In this document: in pieces, positions 55,967 to 64,000 of the stretch
Numbering within the stretch: position 1 is the first letter of the stretch
How the letters are laid out: each line of letters opens with the position of its first letter
Assembly (NCBI GenBank): GCA_900469615.1
Contig: UBYA01000003.1
Location: 62,001 to 126,000, forward strand
Origin: Hyphomicrobiales bacterium
Lineage (GTDB): Bacteria > Pseudomonadota > Alphaproteobacteria > Rhizobiales > Rhizobiaceae
Direction of reading: 5' to 3'
DNA length: 64,000 nt
Notes under the pieces: model-generated
The model's input: the letters and a program-made list of their open reading frames with translations, nothing else
Databases searched by the model: none
What the model was told of the DNA's origin: nothing
Made by a program: the position numbers and the translations under genes

Positions 55967-56086
55967 CGACATTCGCAAGTGCGGACTTACGGCCTTGACG
56001 GCCTGGAATGAAATACGGTCGCCGGGATCCGAAAACCGGCAATGCAAACAAGTTGGGAGACGGGCGAAAGCGTCCGCAGATTCACC

Positions 56087-59071
56087 ATGGCAAGGCAAGA
56101 AGCCAACGAGCAATTTCAGATCACCTCGTTCCTGGATGGCGCCAACGCTGCCTATATCGAGCAGCTCTATGCGCGCTATGAGGACGATCCTTCATCGGTC
56201 TCCGACGAATGGCGGTCTTTCTTCAAGGCGCTCGAGGATAGCCCCGACGATGTGAAGAGAGCGGCCAAGGGCGCCTCCTGGCAGCGCAAGAACTGGCCGA
56301 TCCCGGCGAAGGGCGATCTGGTCTCCGCGCTCGACGGCGACTGGGGCGTGGTCGAAAAGGTCATCGAGACCAAGCTGAAGACCAAGGCCGAGGTCGCCGG
56401 CGTTCCGGCAGACGCGACCGACGTCCTGCGGGCGACGCGCGATTCCGTGCGCGCCATCATGATGATCCGCGCCTATCGCATGCGCGGCCACCTGCACGCC
56501 AAGCTCGATCCGCTCGGCATCGCCGCTCCGGTCGAAGACTACAAGGAACTGTCGCCGGAAGCTTACGGCTTCACCGAGGCCGACCTCGACCGCAAGATCT
56601 TCATCGACAACGTGCTCGGCCTCGAATACGCGACCGTTCGCGAGATGATCGAGATTCTCGAGCGCACCTACTGCTCCACCCTCGGCGTCGAATTCATGCA
56701 CATCTCCAACCCGGAGGAAAAGGCCTGGATTCAGGAGCGTATCGAAGGTCCGGACAAGGGCATCGCTTTCAATCCGGAACGCAAGAAGGCCATCCTCCAG
56801 AAGGTCATCGAAGCCGAAGGCTACGAACAGTTCCTCGACGTCAAGTTCAAGGGCACCAAGCGCTTCGGTCTCGACGGCGGCGAATCGCTGATCCCGGCTC
56901 TCGAACAGATCCTCAAGAGCGGCAGCCAGCTCGGTCTTCGCGAAGCTGTGTTCGGCATGGCCCATCGCGGTCGCCTGAACGTGCTGTCCCAGGTCATGGG
57001 AAAGCCGCACCGCGCGATCTTCCACGAGTTCAAGGGCGGCTCCTATGCGCCTGACGAAGTCGAAGGTTCGGGCGACGTGAAGTACCATCTCGGCGCCTCC
57101 TCGGATCGCGATTTCGACGGCGCCAAGGTACACGTCTCGCTGACGGCAAACCCGTCGCATCTGGAAATCGTCAACCCGGTCGTCATGGGCAAGGCCCGTG
57201 CCAAGCAGGACATGGGCGCCACCCAGTGGGACGGCGACATCATCCCGCTCTCCGAGCGCGCCAAGGTCGTGCCGCTGCTGATCCATGGCGACGCGGCTTT
57301 CGCCGGCCAGGGCGTCGTTGCCGAAATCCTCGGCCTCTCCGGTCTGCGCGGTCATCGCGTTGCCGGCACGATGCACGTCATCATCAACAACCAGATCGGT
57401 TTCACCACCAATCCGGCCTTCTCGCGTTCGTCGCCCTATCCGTCGGACGTCGCAAAGATGATCGAAGCCCCGATCTTCCACGTCAACGGCGACGATCCGG
57501 AAGCGGTCGTCTACGCTGCGAAGATCGCTACCGAATTCCGCATGAAGTTCCACAAGCCCGTTGTGGTCGACCTCTTCTGCTACCGCCGTTACGGCCACAA
57601 TGAAGGCGATGAGCCGTCCTTCACGCAGCCGAACATGTACAAGGTCATCCGCGCCCACAAGACGGTGCTGCAGCTCTATTCGCAGCGGCTGATCAGCGAA
57701 GGCGTGCTGACCGAGGGTGAAGTCGAGAAGATGAAGGCCGACTGGCGCGCGCATCTCGAACAGGAGTTCGAGGCCGGCCAATCCTACAAGCCGAACAAGG
57801 CCGACTGGCTGGACGGCGAGTGGTCCGGCCTGCATACGGCCGACAACGCCGACGAGCAGCGTCGCGGCAAGACCGCCGTGCCGATGAAGATGCTGAAGGA
57901 TATCGGCCGCAAGCTGTCGGAAATCCCGGCCGGCTTCCATGCGCACCGCACCATCCAGCGCTTCATGGAAAACCGCGCCAACATGGTGCAGACCGGGGAG
58001 GGCATCGACTGGGCCATGGCGGAAGCCCTGGCATTCGGTTCGCTCGTGGTCGAAGGCCACAAGATCCGTCTCTCCGGCCAGGACTGCGAACGCGGCACCT
58101 TCTCGCAGCGTCATTCGGTTCTCTACGATCAGGAGACCGAAGAGCGCTATATCCCGCTTGCCAACCTGTCTCCGACGCAGGCCCGCTACGAAGTCATCAA
58201 CTCGATGCTGTCGGAAGAAGCGGTTCTCGGCTTCGAATACGGCTATTCGCTCGCTCGTCCGAACGCGCTGACCCTGTGGGAAGCCCAGTTCGGCGACTTC
58301 GCCAACGGTGCGCAGGTCGTCTTCGACCAGTTCATCTCTTCGGGCGAACGCAAGTGGCTGCGCATGTCCGGCCTCGTCTGCCTGCTGCCGCATGGCTATG
58401 AAGGCCAGGGTCCGGAACACTCGTCCGCCCGCCTGGAACGCTATCTGCAGCTCTGCGCTGAGGATAACATGCAGGTCGCCAACGTCACGACGCCGGCGAA
58501 CTACTTCCACATCCTGCGCCGTCAGCTGAAGCGCGACTTCCGCAAGCCGCTGATCCTGATGACGCCGAAGTCGCTGCTGCGCCACAAGCGCGCCGTGTCG
58601 ACGCTGGCGGAGATGGCGGGCGAAAGCTCGTTCCATCGCCTGCTGTGGGACGATGCCGAACTGATCAAGGACGGTCCGATCAAGCTGCAGAAGGACAACA
58701 AGATCCGTCGCGTCGTCATCTGCTCGGGCAAGGTCTATTACGATCTCCTGGAAGAGCGCGAGAAGCGCGGGATCGACGATATCTACCTGCTGCGCATCGA
58801 ACAGCTTTATCCGTTCCCGGCCAAGGCGCTCATCAACGAGCTCAGCCGCTTCCGCAACGCGGAGATGGTCTGGTGCCAGGAAGAGCCGAAGAACATGGGT
58901 GCGTGGTCCTTCATCGATCCCTATCTGGAATGGGTGCTTGCCCATATCGATGCCAAGTACCAGCGCGTACGCTACACCGGCCGTCCGGCCGCCGCCTCCC
59001 CGGCGACGGGCCTGATGTCCAAGCATCTGTCGCAGCTTGCGGCGTTCCTCGAAGACGCGCTCGGCGGTTGA
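56087..59071 (+). CDS. sucA: 2-oxoglutarate dehydrogenase E1 component
   Basis: SucA is the thiamin-diphosphate E1 subunit that decarboxylates 2-oxoglutarate and succinylates the E2 lipoyl group. The 994-residue protein has the N-terminal segment with FLDGANAAYIEQLY near 13 and DEWRSFF near 40, the ThDP region with HGDAAFAGQGV near 400 through NNQIGFTT near 440, and the transketolase-like C-terminal half. ATG 56087 gives the family N-terminus (MARQEANEQF); an ATG 45 bases upstream is unlikely. The 245-base gap after it contains no convincing gene. Confidence 0.97.
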   Translation: MARQEANEQFQITSFLDGANAAYIEQLYARYEDDPSSVSDEWRSFFKALEDSPDDVKRAAKGASWQRKNWPIPAKGDLVSALDGDWGVVEKVIETKLKTKAEVAGVPADATDVLRATRDSVRAIMMIRAYRMRGHLHAKLDPLGIAAPVEDYKELSPEAYGFTEADLDRKIFIDNVLGLEYATVREMIEILERTYCSTLGVEFMHISNPEEKAWIQERIEGPDKGIAFNPERKKAILQKVIEAEGYEQFLDVKFKGTKRFGLDGGESLIPALEQILKSGSQLGLREAVFGMAHRGRLNVLSQVMGKPHRAIFHEFKGGSYAPDEVEGSGDVKYHLGASSDRDFDGAKVHVSLTANPSHLEIVNPVVMGKARAKQDMGATQWDGDIIPLSERAKVVPLLIHGDAAFAGQGVVAEILGLSGLRGHRVAGTMHVIINNQIGFTTNPAFSRSSPYPSDVAKMIEAPIFHVNGDDPEAVVYAAKIATEFRMKFHKPVVVDLFCYRRYGHNEGDEPSFTQPNMYKVIRAHKTVLQLYSQRLISEGVLTEGEVEKMKADWRAHLEQEFEAGQSYKPNKADWLDGEWSGLHTADNADEQRRGKTAVPMKMLKDIGRKLSEIPAGFHAHRTIQRFMENRANMVQTGEGIDWAMAEALAFGSLVVEGHKIRLSGQDCERGTFSQRHSVLYDQETEERYIPLANLSPTQARYEVINSMLSEEAVLGFEYGYSLARPNALTLWEAQFGDFANGAQVVFDQFISSGERKWLRMSGLVCLLPHGYEGQGPEHSSARLERYLQLCAEDNMQVANVTTPANYFHILRRQLKRDFRKPLILMTPKSLLRHKRAVSTLAEMAGESSFHRLLWDDAELIKDGPIKLQKDNKIRRVVICSGKVYYDLLEEREKRGIDDIYLLRIEQLYPFPAKALINELSRFRNAEMVWCQEEPKNMGAWSFIDPYLEWVLAHIDAKYQRVRYTGRPAAASPATGLMSKHLSQLAAFLEDALGG

Positions 59072-59316
59072 GGGGTTGCGCGATGACCGGTTTTCGTTTG
59101 AAGATCGCGTCGTCGCGTTCCAGCCTTCCGCATGATGCGACGGGGGAGAAGATGGCAGCCATACAGCACCATGCCGCCTATCGCCAGGATCAAGCCCATG
59201 CCCGGTCGACGGTTGCCGTCGTCCGGGTGCTTGTGTCACGGCGCATCACCCGTCCCCCGGCCCTCTGTCGCCGGAATTCCATCTAACTCATAATGACGAA
59301 AATCAGGATTTGAACA

Positions 59317-60552
59317 ATGGCCACTGAAATCCGCGTTCCTACCCTCGGCGAATCCGTCAGCGAAGCGACCGTCGGCACCTGGTTCAAGAAGGTCGGCGAT
59401 GCCATCAAGGCCGATGAGCCGCTTCTCGAACTCGAAACCGACAAGGTGACGATCGAAGTTCCGGCGCCCGCCGCCGGCACCTTGTCCGAAATCGTTGTCC
59501 AGGCCGGCGAAACCGTGGGCCTCGGAGCGCTGCTCGGCCAGATCTCCGCCGGCAACGGCGCTGCCGCCGCTCCTGCTCAGGCCGCCGCCCCGGCAGCTCC
59601 GGCCCCGGCCGCTGCCGCCCCGGTTGCGGCTCCTGCCGTTTCCGCGCCGGCTTCTTCCATGCCGCCGGCCCCGGCCGCCGCCAAGCTGCTCGCTGAAAAC
59701 AATCTCTCCGCCGATCAGGTCGAGGGCAGCGGCAAGCGCGGTCAGGTGCTGAAGGGCGATGTCATCGCCGCCGTCGCCAAGGCCTCCTCTGCGCCGGCCG
59801 CCGCACCGGCTGCTCCGGTCGCCGCGCGTGCCCCGACCGCAGTCGAGGACGTCAACCGCGAAGAGCGCGTCAAGATGACCCGCCTGCGCCAGACGATCGC
59901 CCGCCGCCTGAAGGATGCGCAAAACACCGCCGCCATGCTCACCACCTACAACGAGGTGGACATGAAGGCCGTCATGGACCTGCGCAACAAATACAAGGAC
60001 ATCTTCGAGAAGAAGCATGGCGTGAAGCTCGGCTTCATGGGCTTCTTCACCAAGGCCGTCACCCATGCGCTGAAGGAGCTGCCGGCCGTCAACGCCGAGA
60101 TCGACGGCACCGACATCATCTACAAGAACTACTGCCACATCGGCATGGCCGTCGGCACCGACAAGGGTCTCGTCGTTCCGGTCATCCGCGATGCCGACCA
60201 GATGTCGATCGCCGAGGTCGAGAAGGAGCTTGGCCGTCTGGCAAAGGCTGCCCGCGACGGAACGCTGTCGATGGCCGACATGCAGGGCGGCACCTTCACC
60301 ATCACCAACGGCGGCGTCTATGGCTCGCTGATGTCCTCGCCGATCCTGAACGCGCCGCAGTCGGGCATTCTCGGCATGCACAAGATCCAGGAACGTCCGG
60401 TCGCCATCGGCGGTCAGGTCGTCATCCGTCCGATGATGTATCTGGCTCTCTCCTACGATCACCGCATGGTCGACGGCAAGGAAGCCGTGACCTTCCTCGT
60501 GCGCGTCAAGGAAAGCCTGGAAGATCCCGAACGTCTGGTTCTCGATCTCTAA
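59317..60552 (+). CDS. sucB: 2-oxoglutarate dehydrogenase E2 (dihydrolipoyl succinyltransferase)
   Basis: SucB forms the core of the 2-oxoglutarate dehydrogenase complex. The 411-residue protein has one lipoyl domain (residues 2-77, lipoyl Lys in ETDKVT near 43), an Ala/Pro-rich flexible linker (about 82-120), an E1/E3-binding domain (about 123-158), a second Ala/Pro linker, and the catalytic domain with SYDHRMVDG near 380-388 (active-site His). The ATG follows a roughly 245-base gap after sucA in which I found no supported gene. Confidence 0.97.
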
Positions 60553-60566
60553 GGGAGCGCTGGATC

Positions 60567-61316
60567 ATGTCGACATGGCCCATGCGGATGCTGCGCGGTT
60601 TGTTATGCGCTGCCGCCGCATGGATGCCATCGTCCGCCGGCGCGGACGGGCTCGACGTTTCCAAGCTCAGCAGCAACTTCGATCTTGCGTCGCTTGGCGA
60701 CGCCGATCTCGCCGCCCGCTCGATCAATGTCCTGCGCATCGGCAAGGTGGAACTGACCTCCGGACGCATCGTCGCCAGCGATCCGCTTGTCGGCCCCGAC
60801 CGTGCCGCGCTCGTGCGGACGGTTTCCCCCGGCGACTATCCCGTCACGCTCTATGAAGCCTTCGGCCGCATCGCTGCGGCCAGCATGCGGTTCGCCGAGG
60901 GCAAGCCGGTGCGCTGGGAGCTTGCCGTGGTCCCCGGCCAGGATGTCAATTCGCTGAAGGGCGACGAATTCTTCGGTTATCCCGTCGATGCCGGCCTCGG
61001 CTGCTACATGGATGCCGATACCTACGCGCTGATTCAGGAGCGCGAAAAGCAGGTTCAGGCGGAAAAGGCGTCGTCCGACATCAATTACTATGACGACGTT
61101 CTGGCGTCCGAGCTGGAAGCGAACGAAGAAAAATACGCCATGCACCGGCCGGTATCGGGCAAGCGGGGGAATGTCGCCATTTTCTGGAGCGGCTGGGGCG
61201 ACGGTTTCTATCCGGTTTTCTGGGGCCTCGATGCCAGCGGACGGCCGCTTGTTCTCTTCACGGACTTCGGCGTAACGGAAAATGCCGACGGCCGGCGCGA
61301 GCCGGGAGGGGAATGA
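60567..61316 (+). CDS. exported DUF4241 protein
   Basis: The 249-residue protein carries the DUF4241 domain. Visible motifs are GRIVASDPL (about residues 67-75), GYPVDAGLGCYMD (about 136-148) and a C-terminal WSGWGDGFYPVFWGLDASGRP block (about 211-231), followed by TDFGV. An N-terminal signal peptide (about 1-26, SAGADG) suggests export; I have no record of how common that is in DUF4241. Function unknown. It begins 14 bases after sucB with AAGGGAG at 9 bases, and its stop overlaps the next start (ATGA). The pair is a guest within the sucAB-lpdA cluster. Confidence 0.8.
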   Translation: MSTWPMRMLRGLLCAAAAWMPSSAGADGLDVSKLSSNFDLASLGDADLAARSINVLRIGKVELTSGRIVASDPLVGPDRAALVRTVSPGDYPVTLYEAFGRIAAASMRFAEGKPVRWELAVVPGQDVNSLKGDEFFGYPVDAGLGCYMDADTYALIQEREKQVQAEKASSDINYYDDVLASELEANEEKYAMHRPVSGKRGNVAIFWSGWGDGFYPVFWGLDASGRPLVLFTDFGVTENADGRREPGGE

Positions 61317-61840
61317 CCATGCCGGCGCAGAACATGATAGCACGACTGGCTTCTACGCCCTGGGTCATGCTGGCATTCGCGGTCAATCCCATGCCTGCCT
61401 ACGCGGAAGAATGCGTGCAGGAAAAGGCGGTCTATGTCGATATGGACAATGCCTACGAATTGCGCTTCGAGCCCATGGGGTCCGACTCGCCAGTCAGCAA
61501 CAAGTTCAAGCTGGCGGTGCGCAACACCGCCGTCGTTGCCGATGGCGTCGTCATGCGCAGCGACGACCAGTTGCGCGCCGATGGCCGCATCATGTTCGAA
61601 TGCCCCGAGGGTGACGTGACCGGAGCGGACCTCAGGGCCTGCACCGTCTGGCAGGGCATGGTCTACGCCTCCGACCTGAAGGGCCATATCCGCGCGCTGC
61701 CGGGGGAAGGCGAGAATGCGGCCGACCGGCTTTTCCTGCCGGCGCTTGGACCTTCGATCCAGAAGTCGTCTCTCTGGGGCGAAGGAAAGGCGACCGTCGC
61801 CCCCTGGGATGTCCTCAGTCTGAAAGGATGCTACCAATGA
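61313..61840 (+). CDS. exported protein of unknown function, partner of the DUF4241 gene
   Basis: The 175-residue protein has a signal peptide (about residues 1-31, PAYAEE) and four cysteines in the mature part: ECV near 34, FEC near 98, RAC near 110 and GCYQ at the C-terminus, which could form two disulfides. I recognise no domain. It starts within the DUF4241 stop codon with GGGAGGGG upstream and overlaps the start of the following SDR gene, so all three are translationally coupled. Joint function with the DUF4241 protein is an inference from coupling. Confidence 0.7.
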   Translation: MTMPAQNMIARLASTPWVMLAFAVNPMPAYAEECVQEKAVYVDMDNAYELRFEPMGSDSPVSNKFKLAVRNTAVVADGVVMRSDDQLRADGRIMFECPEGDVTGADLRACTVWQGMVYASDLKGHIRALPGEGENAADRLFLPALGPSIQKSSLWGEGKATVAPWDVLSLKGCYQ

Positions 61841-62592
61841 CCGGGAGTACTGCTGTTCTTCTCGTGACCGGTGGTAGCCGCGGCATCGGTGCCGCGGTTT
61901 GCCTGGCGGCCGCCCAGCATGGCTGGGCCGTGGCGGTCAATTATGTGTCCAACAAGGATGCGGCCGAGGCCGTGGTGGGAACGATCCGCGATGCCGGCGG
62001 CGAGGCGATCGCGGTTGCCGGCGACGTCGGCAAGCCCGAGGACATCAAGTCCATCTTCGCCCAGGTCGATAAGCATTTCGGCCGGATCGACGGGCTCGTC
62101 AATAATGCGGGCATCGTCGACGTCATCCAGCGCCTGGACGAGATGACGCCCGAGCGGCTCGACCGCATGTTCCGCATCAACGTTACCGGCTCGATGCTGG
62201 TGGCGGCCGAAGCCGTGCGCCGCATGTCGACCCGGCATGGCGGCAAGGGCGGGGTGATCGTCAATCTTTCCTCCATGGCCGCCACGCTCGGCGGCGGCGG
62301 GCAATATGTCGATTACGCCGCCTCCAAGGGCGCGATCGACACGTTCACCGTCGGCCTTGCGCGCGAAGTGGCGGCGGAAGGCATCCGCGTCAACGCGGTG
62401 CGCCCCGGCATTATCGATACGGATATCCATGCGGCCGCCGGCCTGCCGGACCGGGCGCGCGATATCGCGCCGCAGCTGCCGATGAAGCGCGCCGGAACCT
62501 CCGACGAGGTTGCCGACGCCATCCTCTACCTGCTCAGCCCTCATGCATCCTATATAACGGGCGCCGTGCTCGACGTGAGTGGCGGCCGATGA
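61837..62592 (+). CDS. SDR family oxidoreductase
   Basis: The 251-residue classical SDR has TGGSRGIG (about residues 12-19), NNAG near 91, the catalytic Ser in NLSSMAA near 145 and YAASKGA near 160, and the C-terminal GAVLDVSGGR typical of FabG-like members. ATG 61837 overlaps the preceding stop by 4 bases and has AAAGG 9 bases upstream; ATG 61828 is an alternative. The N-terminal SRGIGAAVC prefers NADPH by family pattern. Substrate unknown. It precedes a LysE-family gene by 18 bases. Confidence 0.88.
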   Translation: MTGSTAVLLVTGGSRGIGAAVCLAAAQHGWAVAVNYVSNKDAAEAVVGTIRDAGGEAIAVAGDVGKPEDIKSIFAQVDKHFGRIDGLVNNAGIVDVIQRLDEMTPERLDRMFRINVTGSMLVAAEAVRRMSTRHGGKGGVIVNLSSMAATLGGGGQYVDYAASKGAIDTFTVGLAREVAAEGIRVNAVRPGIIDTDIHAAAGLPDRARDIAPQLPMKRAGTSDEVADAILYLLSPHASYITGAVLDVSGGR

Positions 62593-62610
62593 TCGGAATG
62601 GATCGATAAC

Positions 62611-63249
62611 ATGCAGTATATTCTCGAATTCCTCGGCCTCATGGCGGTGTTCTCGATCTTCATCGTCGTTCCGGGCGCCGATTTTGCCGTCATCCTGCGC
62701 CAGAGCATCGTCCATGGCCGCCGCGCCGCCATGATGACCGGGCTCGGCATGGGCTTCTCGCTGCTCTTCCATATCAGCTACACCATTCTCGGTCTCGGCC
62801 TGATCGTGTCGCAGTCGCTTTTCCTGTTCAGCCTGATCAAATGGGCTGGCGTGGGCTACCTCGTCTATCTCGGCATCAAGTCCTTTCGCCAATCCGGCCT
62901 TCAGGTGAAGGACGTCGAGATCACCGAGGAGGATCGCAAGCCGGTCTCCGTCTGGCGCTGCCTGGCGACGGGGTTCATCACCAATGCACTCAATCCGAAG
63001 CCGGTGCTGTTCTTCCTGTCGCTGTTTTCGACGCTGGTCCATCACGACACGCCGGCGCTTATCCAGTTCAGCTACGGCATCGGCATGGCGACGGCGCTCG
63101 TCGCCTGGTTTGCCGGCGTTTCCACCTTCCTCACCGTCAAGCCGGTGCGCGATCGCTTCATCGCGTCGGGCAAATGGTTCAACCGCATCACCGGAGCGGC
63201 GCTCGTCGGCTTCGGCATCCGCCTCGCCTTGGCACGGGCGACTGACTAA
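62611..63249 (+). CDS. LysE/RhtB family transporter
   Basis: The 212-residue protein has six hydrophobic helices and the family N-terminal motif modified to FIVVPGADFAVILRQSIVHGRRAG-like (about residues 17-40), with NPKPVLFFLSLF near 130. It probably exports an amino acid or a related compound. It lies between an SDR gene and lpdA, all on one strand with short gaps, so it may be carried on the mdh-suc-lpd transcript. Confidence 0.87.
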   Translation: MQYILEFLGLMAVFSIFIVVPGADFAVILRQSIVHGRRAAMMTGLGMGFSLLFHISYTILGLGLIVSQSLFLFSLIKWAGVGYLVYLGIKSFRQSGLQVKDVEITEEDRKPVSVWRCLATGFITNALNPKPVLFFLSLFSTLVHHDTPALIQFSYGIGMATALVAWFAGVSTFLTVKPVRDRFIASGKWFNRITGAALVGFGIRLALARATD

Positions 63250-63276
63250 CAAATATATAGAACAAGGAAATCAAAC

Positions 63277-64000
63277 ATGTCCTACGATGTGATCATTATC
63301 GGAACCGGTCCCGGCGGCTATGTCTGCGCAGTCAAGGCAGCGCAGCTCGGCCTGAAGGTCGCGGTCGTTGAAAAGCGCGCGACCTATGGCGGCACCTGCC
63401 TCAACATCGGCTGCATTCCGTCCAAGGCGCTGCTGCACGCTTCCGAAGTGTTCCATCATGCCGGCCATGGCATGGATGCGCTCGGCGTCGAGGTTGCCGC
63501 GCCGACGCTCAATCTTTCGAAGATGATGGCGCACAAGGATGCGACCGTGAAGTCGAACGTCGACGGCGTCGCCTTCCTCTTCAAGAAGAACAAGATCGAT
63601 GCCTTCCAGGGCACCGGCAAGATCGTTGCCGCTGGCAAGGTCGCCGTGACGGCCGAGGACGGCAAGGTGACGGAGATCGAGGGCAAGAACATCGTCATCG
63701 CCACCGGCTCCGATGTTGCCGGCATTCCGGGCGTTCCGCTCGAAATCGACGAGAAGGTCATCATCTCCTCCACCGGCGGCATTGCGCTCGACAAGGTGCC
63801 GGGCAAGATGATCGTCGTCGGCGGCGGTGTCATCGGTCTGGAGCTGGGGTCGGTCTGGTCGCGCCTCGGCGCCAAGGTCACGGTGGTCGAATATCTCGAC
63901 AGCATCCTCGGCGGCATGGACGGCGAAGTTTCCAAGCAGTTCCAGCGCATGCTGGCCAAGCAGGGCATCGAGTTCCATCTCGGCGCCAAGGTGGTCGGCG
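63277..64000 (+). CDS. lpdA: dihydrolipoyl dehydrogenase (E3), partial at window edge
   Basis: LpdA reoxidises dihydrolipoamide of the 2-oxoglutarate dehydrogenase complex with FAD and NAD. The visible 241 codons include the FAD motif GTGPGGYVCA (about residues 9-18), the redox disulfide GGTCLNIGCIPSK (about 37-49), and the NAD-binding VVGGGVIGLELGS near 181-193. The protein continues past the window (family length about 465-470). ATG 63277 follows CAAGGAAATC. It completes the mdh-sucCDAB set as the E3 component. Confidence 0.96.
   Translation, partial: MSYDVIIIGTGPGGYVCAVKAAQLGLKVAVVEKRATYGGTCLNIGCIPSKALLHASEVFHHAGHGMDALGVEVAAPTLNLSKMMAHKDATVKSNVDGVAFLFKKNKIDAFQGTGKIVAAGKVAVTAEDGKVTEIEGKNIVIATGSDVAGIPGVPLEIDEKVIISSTGGIALDKVPGKMIVVGGGVIGLELGSVWSRLGAKVTVVEYLDSILGGMDGEVSKQFQRMLAKQGIEFHLGAKVVG

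What the first reader, a model, noticed from the sequence alone, without database searches (positions are those of the whole stretch)
60567..61840. Exported DUF4241 protein with a coupled exported partner in the 2-oxoglutarate dehydrogenase cluster
Between sucB and lpdA lies a DUF4241 gene whose product has a signal peptide, followed with an ATGA overlap by a four-cysteine exported protein of no known family, itself overlapping an SDR gene. Two co-translated unknown exported proteins inside a central-metabolism cluster are unusual and could be a periplasmic binding or inhibitor pair expressed with the TCA cycle.
Basis: partly seen in the sequence, partly recalled or inferred. Interest (0 to 1): 0.5.

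Follow-up and report, generated by a model that had tools for sequence, protein, structure and literature searches.

The report
Exported immunity-type protein in TCA operon
A Rhizobium gene between two subunits of a central-metabolism enzyme encodes a probably secreted member of a protein family that elsewhere sits among bacterial anti-toxin (immunity) genes, suggesting that these bacteria may have wired protection against neighbours' toxins into a metabolic operon; its secreted neighbour looks like a separate, older resident rather than an obligate partner.

Summary
A (60567-61316, DUF4241) and B (61313-61840, four cysteines, no family) have signal-peptide-like leaders and ATGA overlaps between sucB and lpdA. 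They are not an obligate pair: of 297 family genomes 9 have both, 5 only A, 148 only B, 135 neither (Fisher p 0.42). B's steady neighbour is the SDR gene (80 of 80 named loci). A is the stranger gene. In 12 of 14 Rhizobiaceae genomes it lies between sucB and lpd, in the other two beside one of them. In other families of the order it lies there too, or downstream of icd (14 of 17 genomes), or 5 nt after acsA, in different clades. On plasmids of distant bacteria DUF4241 lies in polyimmunity arrays (Imm22, Imm51, SUKH) and after a Fic gene. Its four conserved Asp and Fic link match Imm13 of Zhang 2012. Best reading: an exported, constantly expressed orphan-immunity-type protein. The TCA-function and A-B-complex readings have less support. 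Toxin, target and export are untested.

The parts
56042..59071 (+). sucA (2-oxoglutarate dehydrogenase E1), neighbour
   Evidence: ORF; orthologue annotated in the Rhizobium sp. NLR16a record
59317..60552 (+). sucB (E2), 14 nt upstream of A
   Evidence: ORF; annotated odhB in the orthologous locus
60567..61316 (+). Gene A: exported-looking DUF4241 protein, 249 aa
   Evidence: Pfam PF14025 E 5.6e-44; only match in genome; mature dN/dS 0.129
60567..60644 (+). A leader: likely signal peptide, residues 1-26, cleavage after AGA
   Evidence: read from sequence; A-x-A position in 54 of 54, leader dN/dS 0.343
60780..60782 (+). codon of conserved Asp72 of A; the other three conserved Asp are residues 141, 149 and 212
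   Evidence: all four Asp kept in 37 of 44 DUF4241 sequences, including immunity-array members
61313..61316 (+). ATGA overlap of A stop and B start
   Evidence: sequence; 4-nt overlap at 47 of 54 full-length A-B junctions of named Rhizobium loci, with starts as chosen by the script
61313..61840 (+). Gene B: exported-looking four-cysteine protein, 175 aa, no known family, predicted small beta-barrel
   Evidence: no Pfam/NCBIfam hit; model pLDDT 78.5; 157 of 297 family genomes
61313..61405 (+). B leader: likely signal peptide, residues 1-31, cleavage after AYA
   Evidence: A-x-A before the first mature Cys in 79 of 79 anchored rows
61837..62592 (+). SDR oxidoreductase gene, overlaps B by ATGA
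   Evidence: Pfam adh_short_C2; follows B in 80 of 80 named loci, 4-nt overlap in 78 of 80
62611..63249 (+). LysE-type exporter gene, neighbour, variable between genomes
   Evidence: Pfam LysE E 3.3e-33; absent or in another place in other genomes
63277..63999 (+). lpdA (E3), start of gene, runs off the window
   Evidence: ORF; annotated lpdA in the orthologous locus

Best explanation
Gene A is an exported member of DUF4241, which I take to be the immunity-domain family Imm13 of polymorphic-toxin systems. It was acquired horizontally, carries a signal peptide in this lineage, and sits downstream of a housekeeping gene (sucB here; icd or acsA in relatives), so that it is made constantly. In the periplasm it most likely works as an orphan immunity protein: its conserved four-Asp core binds and blocks a toxin delivered by competing bacteria, at a periplasmic target or in transit. 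Gene B is an older, independent resident of the same operon: an exported, probably disulfide-bonded small beta-barrel translated together with the SDR gene, not A's obligate partner. Shown: coordinates, family, conserved leader-like N-termini, overlaps, purifying selection, recurrent placement beside central-carbon genes, immunity arrays around some distant DUF4241 genes, conservation of the four Asp. Inferred: DUF4241 = Imm13, export, horizontal origin, constant expression, toxin binding, periplasmic site of action.
For: DUF4241 assignment is firm. In distant bacteria DUF4241 lies in polyimmunity arrays: Phocaeicola, Imm22 twice plus SUKH; Subdoligranulum, Imm51 plus SUKH and an ankyrin protein; Nostoc, Tdi1_C, just above its cut-off (28.7 against 27.4 bits). 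In Fusobacterium the DUF4241 ORF starts 8 nt after a Fic gene. Zhang et al. 2012 (PMC3482391, passages of table and text seen) describe Imm13 as alpha+beta with 'D, D, D, D', with Tox-DOC in fusobacteria and in heterogeneous polyimmunity loci. DUF4241 here keeps all four Asp in 37 of 44 sequences, window A included, and A models as alpha+beta. Leader-bearing DUF4241 recurs beside central-carbon genes in three placements: sucB, icd and acsA, which fall in different parts of the tree. No promoter-like match from 60300 to 63400 (0 found, 0.8 expected) is consistent with read-through from upstream. The genome carries two adjacent T6SS sheath-type genes, so it lives with contact-dependent weapons.
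Against: A itself has no toxin or immunity gene beside it. Fic/DOC toxins act in the cytosol (recalled) whereas A looks exported, so the toxin must differ or be caught in transit. Export is not general even in the suc locus: by eye 8 of the 14 Rhizobiaceae-sample genomes have an evident leader on at least one A, 5 have none (G092, G096, G132, G275, G329) and one gene is frame-broken. Mature A is under ordinary purifying selection (dN/dS 0.13), without the fast change reported for some orphan immunity genes (abstract of PMC12247911). Named immunity families above cut-off were found in 3 of 10 distant plasmid contexts, a Fic gene in a fourth, a sub-threshold Imm11 in a fifth; L079 has an Xre/MbcA antitoxin gene about 2 kb away, and L080, L239, L240 and L245 gave no such family, only some neighbours being scanned. 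The conserved-Asp pattern is broken in 7 of 44 rows: 4 icd-type rows have Glu at the fourth place and one suc-locus row lacks the third. PADLOC has no match to A or B. DUF4241 = Imm13 was not tested by sequence.
Confidence: 0.45

Rival explanations
1. A is a periplasmic sensor or binding protein for a TCA metabolite, co-expressed with the enzymes around 2-oxoglutarate and acetyl-CoA.
For: Recurrent placement by sucB, icd and acsA. The 22 best rows of the second-look fold comparison of the A model (Z 5.5 to 3.9) are, by title, almost all GntR-family regulators or their effector domains, plus a DUF98 protein; the next row, RseB, has Z 3.3. That this is the ligand-binding UTRA/chorismate-lyase fold is recalled; chorismate lyase itself scores Z 2.9.
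Against: Foldseek gives no PDB match at E 0.001 or better and TM-scores near 0.2; Z below 8 may be only a common arrangement. Pfam gives no UTRA match at E up to 1. Distant DUF4241 genes lie in immunity arrays rather than metabolic loci where neighbours were identified. acsA does not touch 2-oxoglutarate.
Confidence: 0.2
2. A is cargo that drifted into a permissive, well-transcribed interval and now has some other envelope role; the sucB-lpd gap is a cargo hot spot and the metabolic location means nothing for function.
For: The gap holds many different genes: A, B, SDR, two kinds of LysE gene, and other small or exported-looking ORFs. A is lost or truncated in some Rhizobium. The inferred A and B orthologues of R. 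leguminosarum, RL4432 and RL4431, do not occur in the text of an INSeq study that lists growth-impairing hypothetical genes.
Against: A is under purifying selection and keeps its conserved core in most rows. Placements beside icd and acsA are not explained by one hot spot.
Confidence: 0.2
3. A and B form one secreted complex or inhibitor pair that works together.
For: Overlapping genes in one operon; both exported-looking; adjacent in 9 of 9 family-sample genomes that have both.
Against: No co-occurrence beyond chance (p 0.42); A without B in 5 of 14, B without A in 148 of 157; A and B separated in G903; B kept where A is truncated. Complex not modelled.
Confidence: 0.07
4. The A, B, SDR block is a local accessory module of the 2-oxoglutarate dehydrogenase complex.
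For: B-SDR linkage next to lpd is nearly constant (SDR after B in 80 of 80 named loci and 56 of 57 unnamed ones). One paper passage says that SMc02486 'is considered to play a role' in the TCA cycle of S. meliloti (PMC6558427, one passage seen).
Against: A and B look exported while the complex is cytosolic. The S. meliloti statement is second-hand, and that SMc02486 is this SDR's orthologue is inferred from recalled gene order.
Confidence: 0.08

Closest known systems
Imm13 immunity domain of polymorphic-toxin systems (Zhang et al. 2012, PMC3482391, passages seen)
   Same: alpha+beta, four conserved Asp, polyimmunity loci, Fic/DOC toxin partner in fusobacteria
   Different: A looks exported, has no toxin or immunity neighbour, and is embedded in a TCA operon
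Pfam DUF4241 (PF14025)
   Same: full-length domain match, 151 bits
   Different: A adds a leader; the distant members read here show no evident leader and some carry extra domains
Orphan immunity genes of recombinase-associated interbacterial defence clusters (PMC12247911, abstract and outline seen)
   Same: immunity-type gene without its toxin
   Different: those lie in arrays linked to a recombinase and the ones studied have SUKH domains; A lies alone in a housekeeping operon
GntR-regulator effector domain (UTRA, label recalled) / chorismate lyase fold
   Same: best coherent weak fold group for the A model, Z about 5
   Different: no sequence match, no DNA-binding domain, low TM-scores
Avidin/lipocalin-like small beta-barrels (for B)
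   Same: best weak fold group, bradavidin2 Z 7.0 over 91 residues at 3.5 A; a designed barrel scores 6.9
   Different: best Foldseek E 0.81, no sequence match; a conserved CPxGDxTG...CTxW motif and four Cys of its own

Membership tests
DUF4241 (PF14025) | score above Pfam gathering cut-off over the whole domain | tested here: met
   151 bits against 27, profile 1-187 of 189
Imm13 (polymorphic-toxin immunity) | four conserved Asp | tested here: met
   window A has all four; 37 of 44 DUF4241 rows have all four; that these are Zhang's four Asp is inferred
Imm13 (polymorphic-toxin immunity) | alpha+beta fold | tested here: met
   model with pLDDT 76.2, helices and strands mixed
Imm13 (polymorphic-toxin immunity) | family members in polyimmunity loci or beside Fic/DOC toxins | tested here: met
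   for some distant DUF4241 members: 3 of 10 contexts with immunity families, 1 with Fic
Imm13 (polymorphic-toxin immunity) | this gene itself lies beside a toxin or other immunity genes | tested here: not met
   neighbours are sucB, B, SDR, LysE, lpdA
Imm13 (polymorphic-toxin immunity) | sequence match to the published Imm13 alignment | not tested
   the additional file of the paper was not available
Imm13 (polymorphic-toxin immunity) | binds and neutralises a toxin | not testable with these tools
   needs experiment
UTRA / chorismate lyase-like | shared fold with high structural score | tested here: inconclusive
   VIA Z 5.5 at 3.3 A over 91 residues; Foldseek E 0.028 at best
Avidin or lipocalin superfamily (B) | shared barrel fold with high structural score | tested here: inconclusive
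   VIA Z 7.0; Foldseek E 0.81 at best
Obligate A-B two-gene system | the two genes co-occur beyond chance | tested here: not met
   9, 5, 148, 135 in 297 genomes, Fisher p 0.42
Known anti-phage defence protein | match to a PADLOC model | tested here: not met
   0 families at E up to 1 for A and B

The most novel reading that the evidence does not exclude
Bacteria of the Rhizobium order have several times built an exported immunity-domain protein into central-carbon operons (sucAB, icd, acsA), giving constant, growth-linked periplasmic protection against contact-delivered toxins: a form of orphan immunity outside defence islands and immunity arrays.
Probability: 0.27. Interest if true: 0.7.

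Novelty: new variant of a known kind. Interest (0 to 1): 0.48.

Why it matters
Under the name DUF4241 the family has no paper in the searched library (0 papers). Tying it to the Imm13 immunity family, and showing leader-bearing versions lodged in TCA and acetate operons, makes a concrete prediction: immunity against interbacterial toxins can be hidden in housekeeping operons, where scans for defence islands would not look. It also separates the overlapping gene B as a widespread rhizobial exported-looking protein of its own, linked to the SDR gene.

Tried and rejected
A crude signal-peptide rule was dropped because it also accepted 57 of 79 SDR proteins and 49 of 134 mature fragments; replaced by A-x-A position and leader dN/dS. 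A hydropathy scan upstream of the domain core misplaced the core in several rows (for example L059, L060, L215-L217), so statements on which relatives have leaders are by eye. PDB sequence searches with A alone (none up to E 1) and with A and B profiles gave nothing better than E 0.066. PHROGs gave only a weak unknown-function match for A (E 0.0023). Rfam found nothing at gathering score in 59000-63400. Terminator-like sites are in excess (6 found, 2.0 expected, sd 1.6) but all six lie inside coding sequence, and I did not believe them. The viral fold library returned unannotated phage and giant-virus proteins (best E 5.5e-06), which says that similar folds are widespread but not what they do. 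Literature: 'DUF4241' 0 papers; the listing for 'PF14025' was of Plasmodium and other unrelated papers (listing only); RL4429-RL4432 0 papers; Imm13 in the immunity sense only in Zhang 2012, the other two listed papers being unrelated by title. Phage records had no match to the IMG/VR DUF4241. MliC/PliC lysozyme inhibitors were considered for B from memory; none was among the rows shown for B, which excludes nothing. A complex prediction was not possible.

Rows dropped before counts: the dN/dS medians used only loci before L112, A over 200 aa (28 rows) and B (30 rows); pairs with dS outside 0.1-1.5 were left out. One of 41 A rows chosen for the tree (L191) was left out because my coordinates gave a stop. 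Weak DUF4241 matches in family f49 (4 genomes, 2 of them below cut-off) were searched for sucA, sucB, lpd and icd only (none found) and are not in the placement counts. L244 was fetched but its neighbours were not scanned.

Full report
What is there. Between sucB (59317-60552) and lpdA (63277-) lie, on one strand: A (60567-61316, DUF4241, 249 aa), B (61313-61840, 175 aa, no family), an SDR gene (61837-62592) and a LysE-type gene (62611-63249). A and B overlap by ATGA, B and the SDR by ATGA; sucB to A is 14 nt. No promoter-like match was found from 60300 to 63400 (0 found, 0.8 expected) and no Rfam family from 59000 to 63400. A is the only DUF4241 match in the genome. The nearest B relatives in named genomes are Rhizobium, first R. 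lusitanum and R. hainanense at 90%.

Are the genes real and exported? Over named Rhizobium loci the mature parts are under purifying selection (median dN/dS A 0.129, B 0.087; 28 and 30 rows) while the leaders are relaxed (0.343 and 0.469). An A-x-A site stands at the expected place in 54 of 54 full-length A and 79 of 79 anchorable B, against 25.8 and 51.2 in shuffled leaders. B's four cysteines are invariant in the 50 rows of one alignment; the last is lost in 1 of 20 more diverse rows. Export is therefore likely in this lineage but rests on sequence alone.

Are A and B a pair? In the Rhizobiaceae sample of 297 genomes B is found in 157 (62 of 109 genera) and A in 14 (7 of 109 genera). By handle, 9 genomes have both, 5 only A, 148 only B, 135 neither; Fisher p 0.42. 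B was searched there with a single sequence, so distant B could be missed. B is tied to the suc locus: the 57 B loci fetched all have sucB and/or lpd in the same 3.5 kb, and 56 of 57 have the SDR gene. In 80 named loci (the best 80 of 417 found) the SDR follows B in 80, with a 4-nt overlap in 78; A is upstream in 56, of which 54 are full length and 2 are cut to 80 aa. A third such truncation is L010. The 4-nt A-B overlap holds at 47 of the 54 full-length junctions, with starts as chosen by the script. Where both occur in the 297-genome sample they are adjacent (9 of 9), but in G903 a LysE gene separates them. A profile search of 150 genomes of the order found B in 6, one of them (G1416) outside Rhizobiaceae and outside a suc locus. 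So A and B are neighbours by operon, not an obligate pair, and B's constant companion is the SDR gene.

Where is A elsewhere in the class? A class sample found it in no other genome (1 of 385, our own). Samples by phylum (20 of 398), order (12 of 155) and family found more; these samples overlap. In the Rhizobiaceae sample 12 of 14 genomes have A between sucB and lpd (one gene frame-broken, G087); G092 has it directly after sucB with no lpd found in 18 kb, and G096 has it upstream of lpd with no sucB found in 17.8 kb. By eye, 8 of these 14 have an evident leader on at least one A, 5 do not (G092, G096, G132, G275, G329), and the broken one was not judged. The sucB-A-lpd order is also seen in Methylobacterium bullatum (L077), in G852 (L178; the only one of 149 genomes sampled in its family) and, overlapping both neighbours, in G1390 (L235); all three have a hydrophobic N-terminus, anchor-like in the first two. 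In the family of G037, 17 of 103 genomes have A. In 9 of these it starts 2-127 nt after icd on the same strand, in one 498 nt after it, in 4 about 1-2.8 kb downstream of it, and in 3 (L214, L218, L220) no icd was found; the 14 icd-linked ones show leaders by eye. In two genomes of family f278 it starts 5 nt after an acetyl-CoA synthetase gene (Pfam ACAS_N in both). In two f12 genomes (L236, L237) and in L218 and L220 there is no suc, icd or lpd gene nearby and no evident leader; L214 has a leader by eye but no such neighbour. A maximum-likelihood tree of 40 rows separates the acs rows (100/100, two rows of one genus) and keeps suc and icd rows mostly apart (2 changes each, against 12.3 and 9.8 when shuffled); long branches make details unsure and one origin of each label is not ruled out. 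So A has come to stand beside three different central-carbon genes. Whether that exceeds chance for exported cargo genes was not tested against matched genes, and that these operons are strongly expressed is general knowledge, not measured here.

What does DUF4241 do elsewhere? On plasmid records of distant bacteria it lies in immunity arrays in some cases. Phocaeicola: Imm22, SUKH-1, Imm22, DUF4241, DUF4265, all on one strand. Subdoligranulum: an ankyrin protein, then DUF4241, then Imm51 (27 nt on), DUF6966, SUKH. Nostoc: Tdi1_C (28.7 bits against 27.4) between two DUF4241 genes. Dyadobacter: a sub-threshold Imm11 just upstream. Fusobacterium: a Fic gene ending 8 nt before the DUF4241 ORF. 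L079 has only an Xre/MbcA antitoxin gene about 2 kb away; L080, L239, L240 and L245 gave no immunity or toxin family, their neighbours being scanned in part; L244 was not scanned. So 3 of 10 scanned contexts hold named immunity families above cut-off and a fourth a Fic gene. In four other proteobacterial genomes (L179-L182) DUF4241 stands in no TCA locus; their neighbours were not scanned.

Family identity. Zhang et al. 2012 (PMC3482391; passages of tables and of the polyimmunity section seen) describe Imm13 as alpha+beta with 'D, D, D, D', with Tox-DOC in fusobacteria, in heterogeneous polyimmunity loci, and as one of the prominent domains of polyimmunity proteins. DUF4241 shows the same marks: 37 of 44 rows keep all four Asp (window D72, D141, D149, D212), among them suc, icd and acs types and the immunity-array members; of the 7 exceptions 4 are icd-type rows with Glu at the fourth place, 2 are suc-locus rows and one is Streptomyces. 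The A model is alpha+beta, and the Fic and polyimmunity contexts are above. I therefore equate DUF4241 with Imm13, by inference; the published alignment was not seen, and NCBIfam has no family for these proteins above its cut-offs.

Structures. The A model (pLDDT 76.2, pTM 0.77, 43 sequences) has no Foldseek match in the PDB at E 0.001. The second look gives one coherent weak group, GntR-regulator effector domains and a DUF98 protein, Z 5.5 to 3.9 over 22 rows, the next row being 3.3. The B model (pLDDT 78.5, pTM 0.73) resembles small barrels, avidins first, Z 7.0. Both are leads only.

Other evidence. In R. leguminosarum 3841 an INSeq study lists RL4434 and RL4437, hypothetical genes numbered within the suc cluster, as growth-impaired, but RL4432 and RL4431 do not occur in its main text (PMC5118466; section 13 part 1 and passages seen). 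By numbering down from RL4433 (sucB) these would be A and B, which I could not verify; if so, neither is needed for growth on the two media. The window's genome has two adjacent type VI sheath-type genes.

How it most likely works. Transcription from upstream would carry A, B, SDR, LysE and lpd together, with coupled translation of A, B and SDR. A would be exported and would bind a toxin through the conserved core shared with immunity-array members. The weak points are that A has no toxin or immunity neighbour, that Fic toxins act in the cytosol (recalled), that several relatives in the same locus lack a leader, and that A evolves slowly. B is a different exported-looking protein whose role is unknown; from its constancy beside the SDR it belongs with that gene rather than with A.

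Verdict. This is a new variant of a known kind, of moderate interest, with an untested function.

Noticed in passing
L243:3159-4651 (Fusobacterium vincentii pSB055A record): A Fic/DOC gene directly followed by DUF4241, a likely toxin-immunity or toxin-antitoxin pair.
   Followed up: partly
L066, L067 (genomes G161, G232), sucB-lpd interval: Two DUF4241 domains fused head-to-tail in one ORF of about 500 aa with an arginine-pair leader that looks Tat-like by eye.
   Followed up: partly
L060/L072 (G213) and L164/L177 (G878): Two tandem DUF4241 genes upstream of B in the suc locus; in G213 the copy next to B has a leader by eye and the other does not.
   Followed up: partly
L238:5077-5625 (genome G1416, another family of the order): The only B relative seen outside Rhizobiaceae; it is not in a suc locus and overlaps the ORF of another exported-looking protein (L238:4361-5164); neither has a Pfam match at E up to 0.1.
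   Followed up: partly
L124:6381-8627 (Rhizobium sp. RCAM05350): The SDR reading frame runs on into lpd, giving one 748-aa ORF: a fusion, or a frame error in the record.
   Followed up: no
sucB-lpd interval in L066, L190, L076 and others: The interval looks like a hot spot for small cargo genes (two kinds of LysE gene, small membrane and exported-looking proteins); a YciI gene sits between sucA and sucB in L076.
   Followed up: no
L178:8613-9800 (G852): The DUF4241 protein in this suc locus looks membrane-anchored and has a C-terminal extension matching those of DUF4241 proteins L181 (39%) and L179 (30%) from other genomes of the phylum.
   Followed up: partly
L190 (G087) and L221 (G1132): Frame-broken DUF4241 genes in a suc and an icd locus, signs of ongoing loss.
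   Followed up: no
L162, L163 (IMG/VR contigs): DUF4241 genes near a terminase-like ORF (label by eye), apparently phage or prophage cargo.
   Followed up: no
G000:C32:32811-35131: Two adjacent TssC/VipB-type genes of a type VI secretion system in the window's own genome.
   Followed up: no
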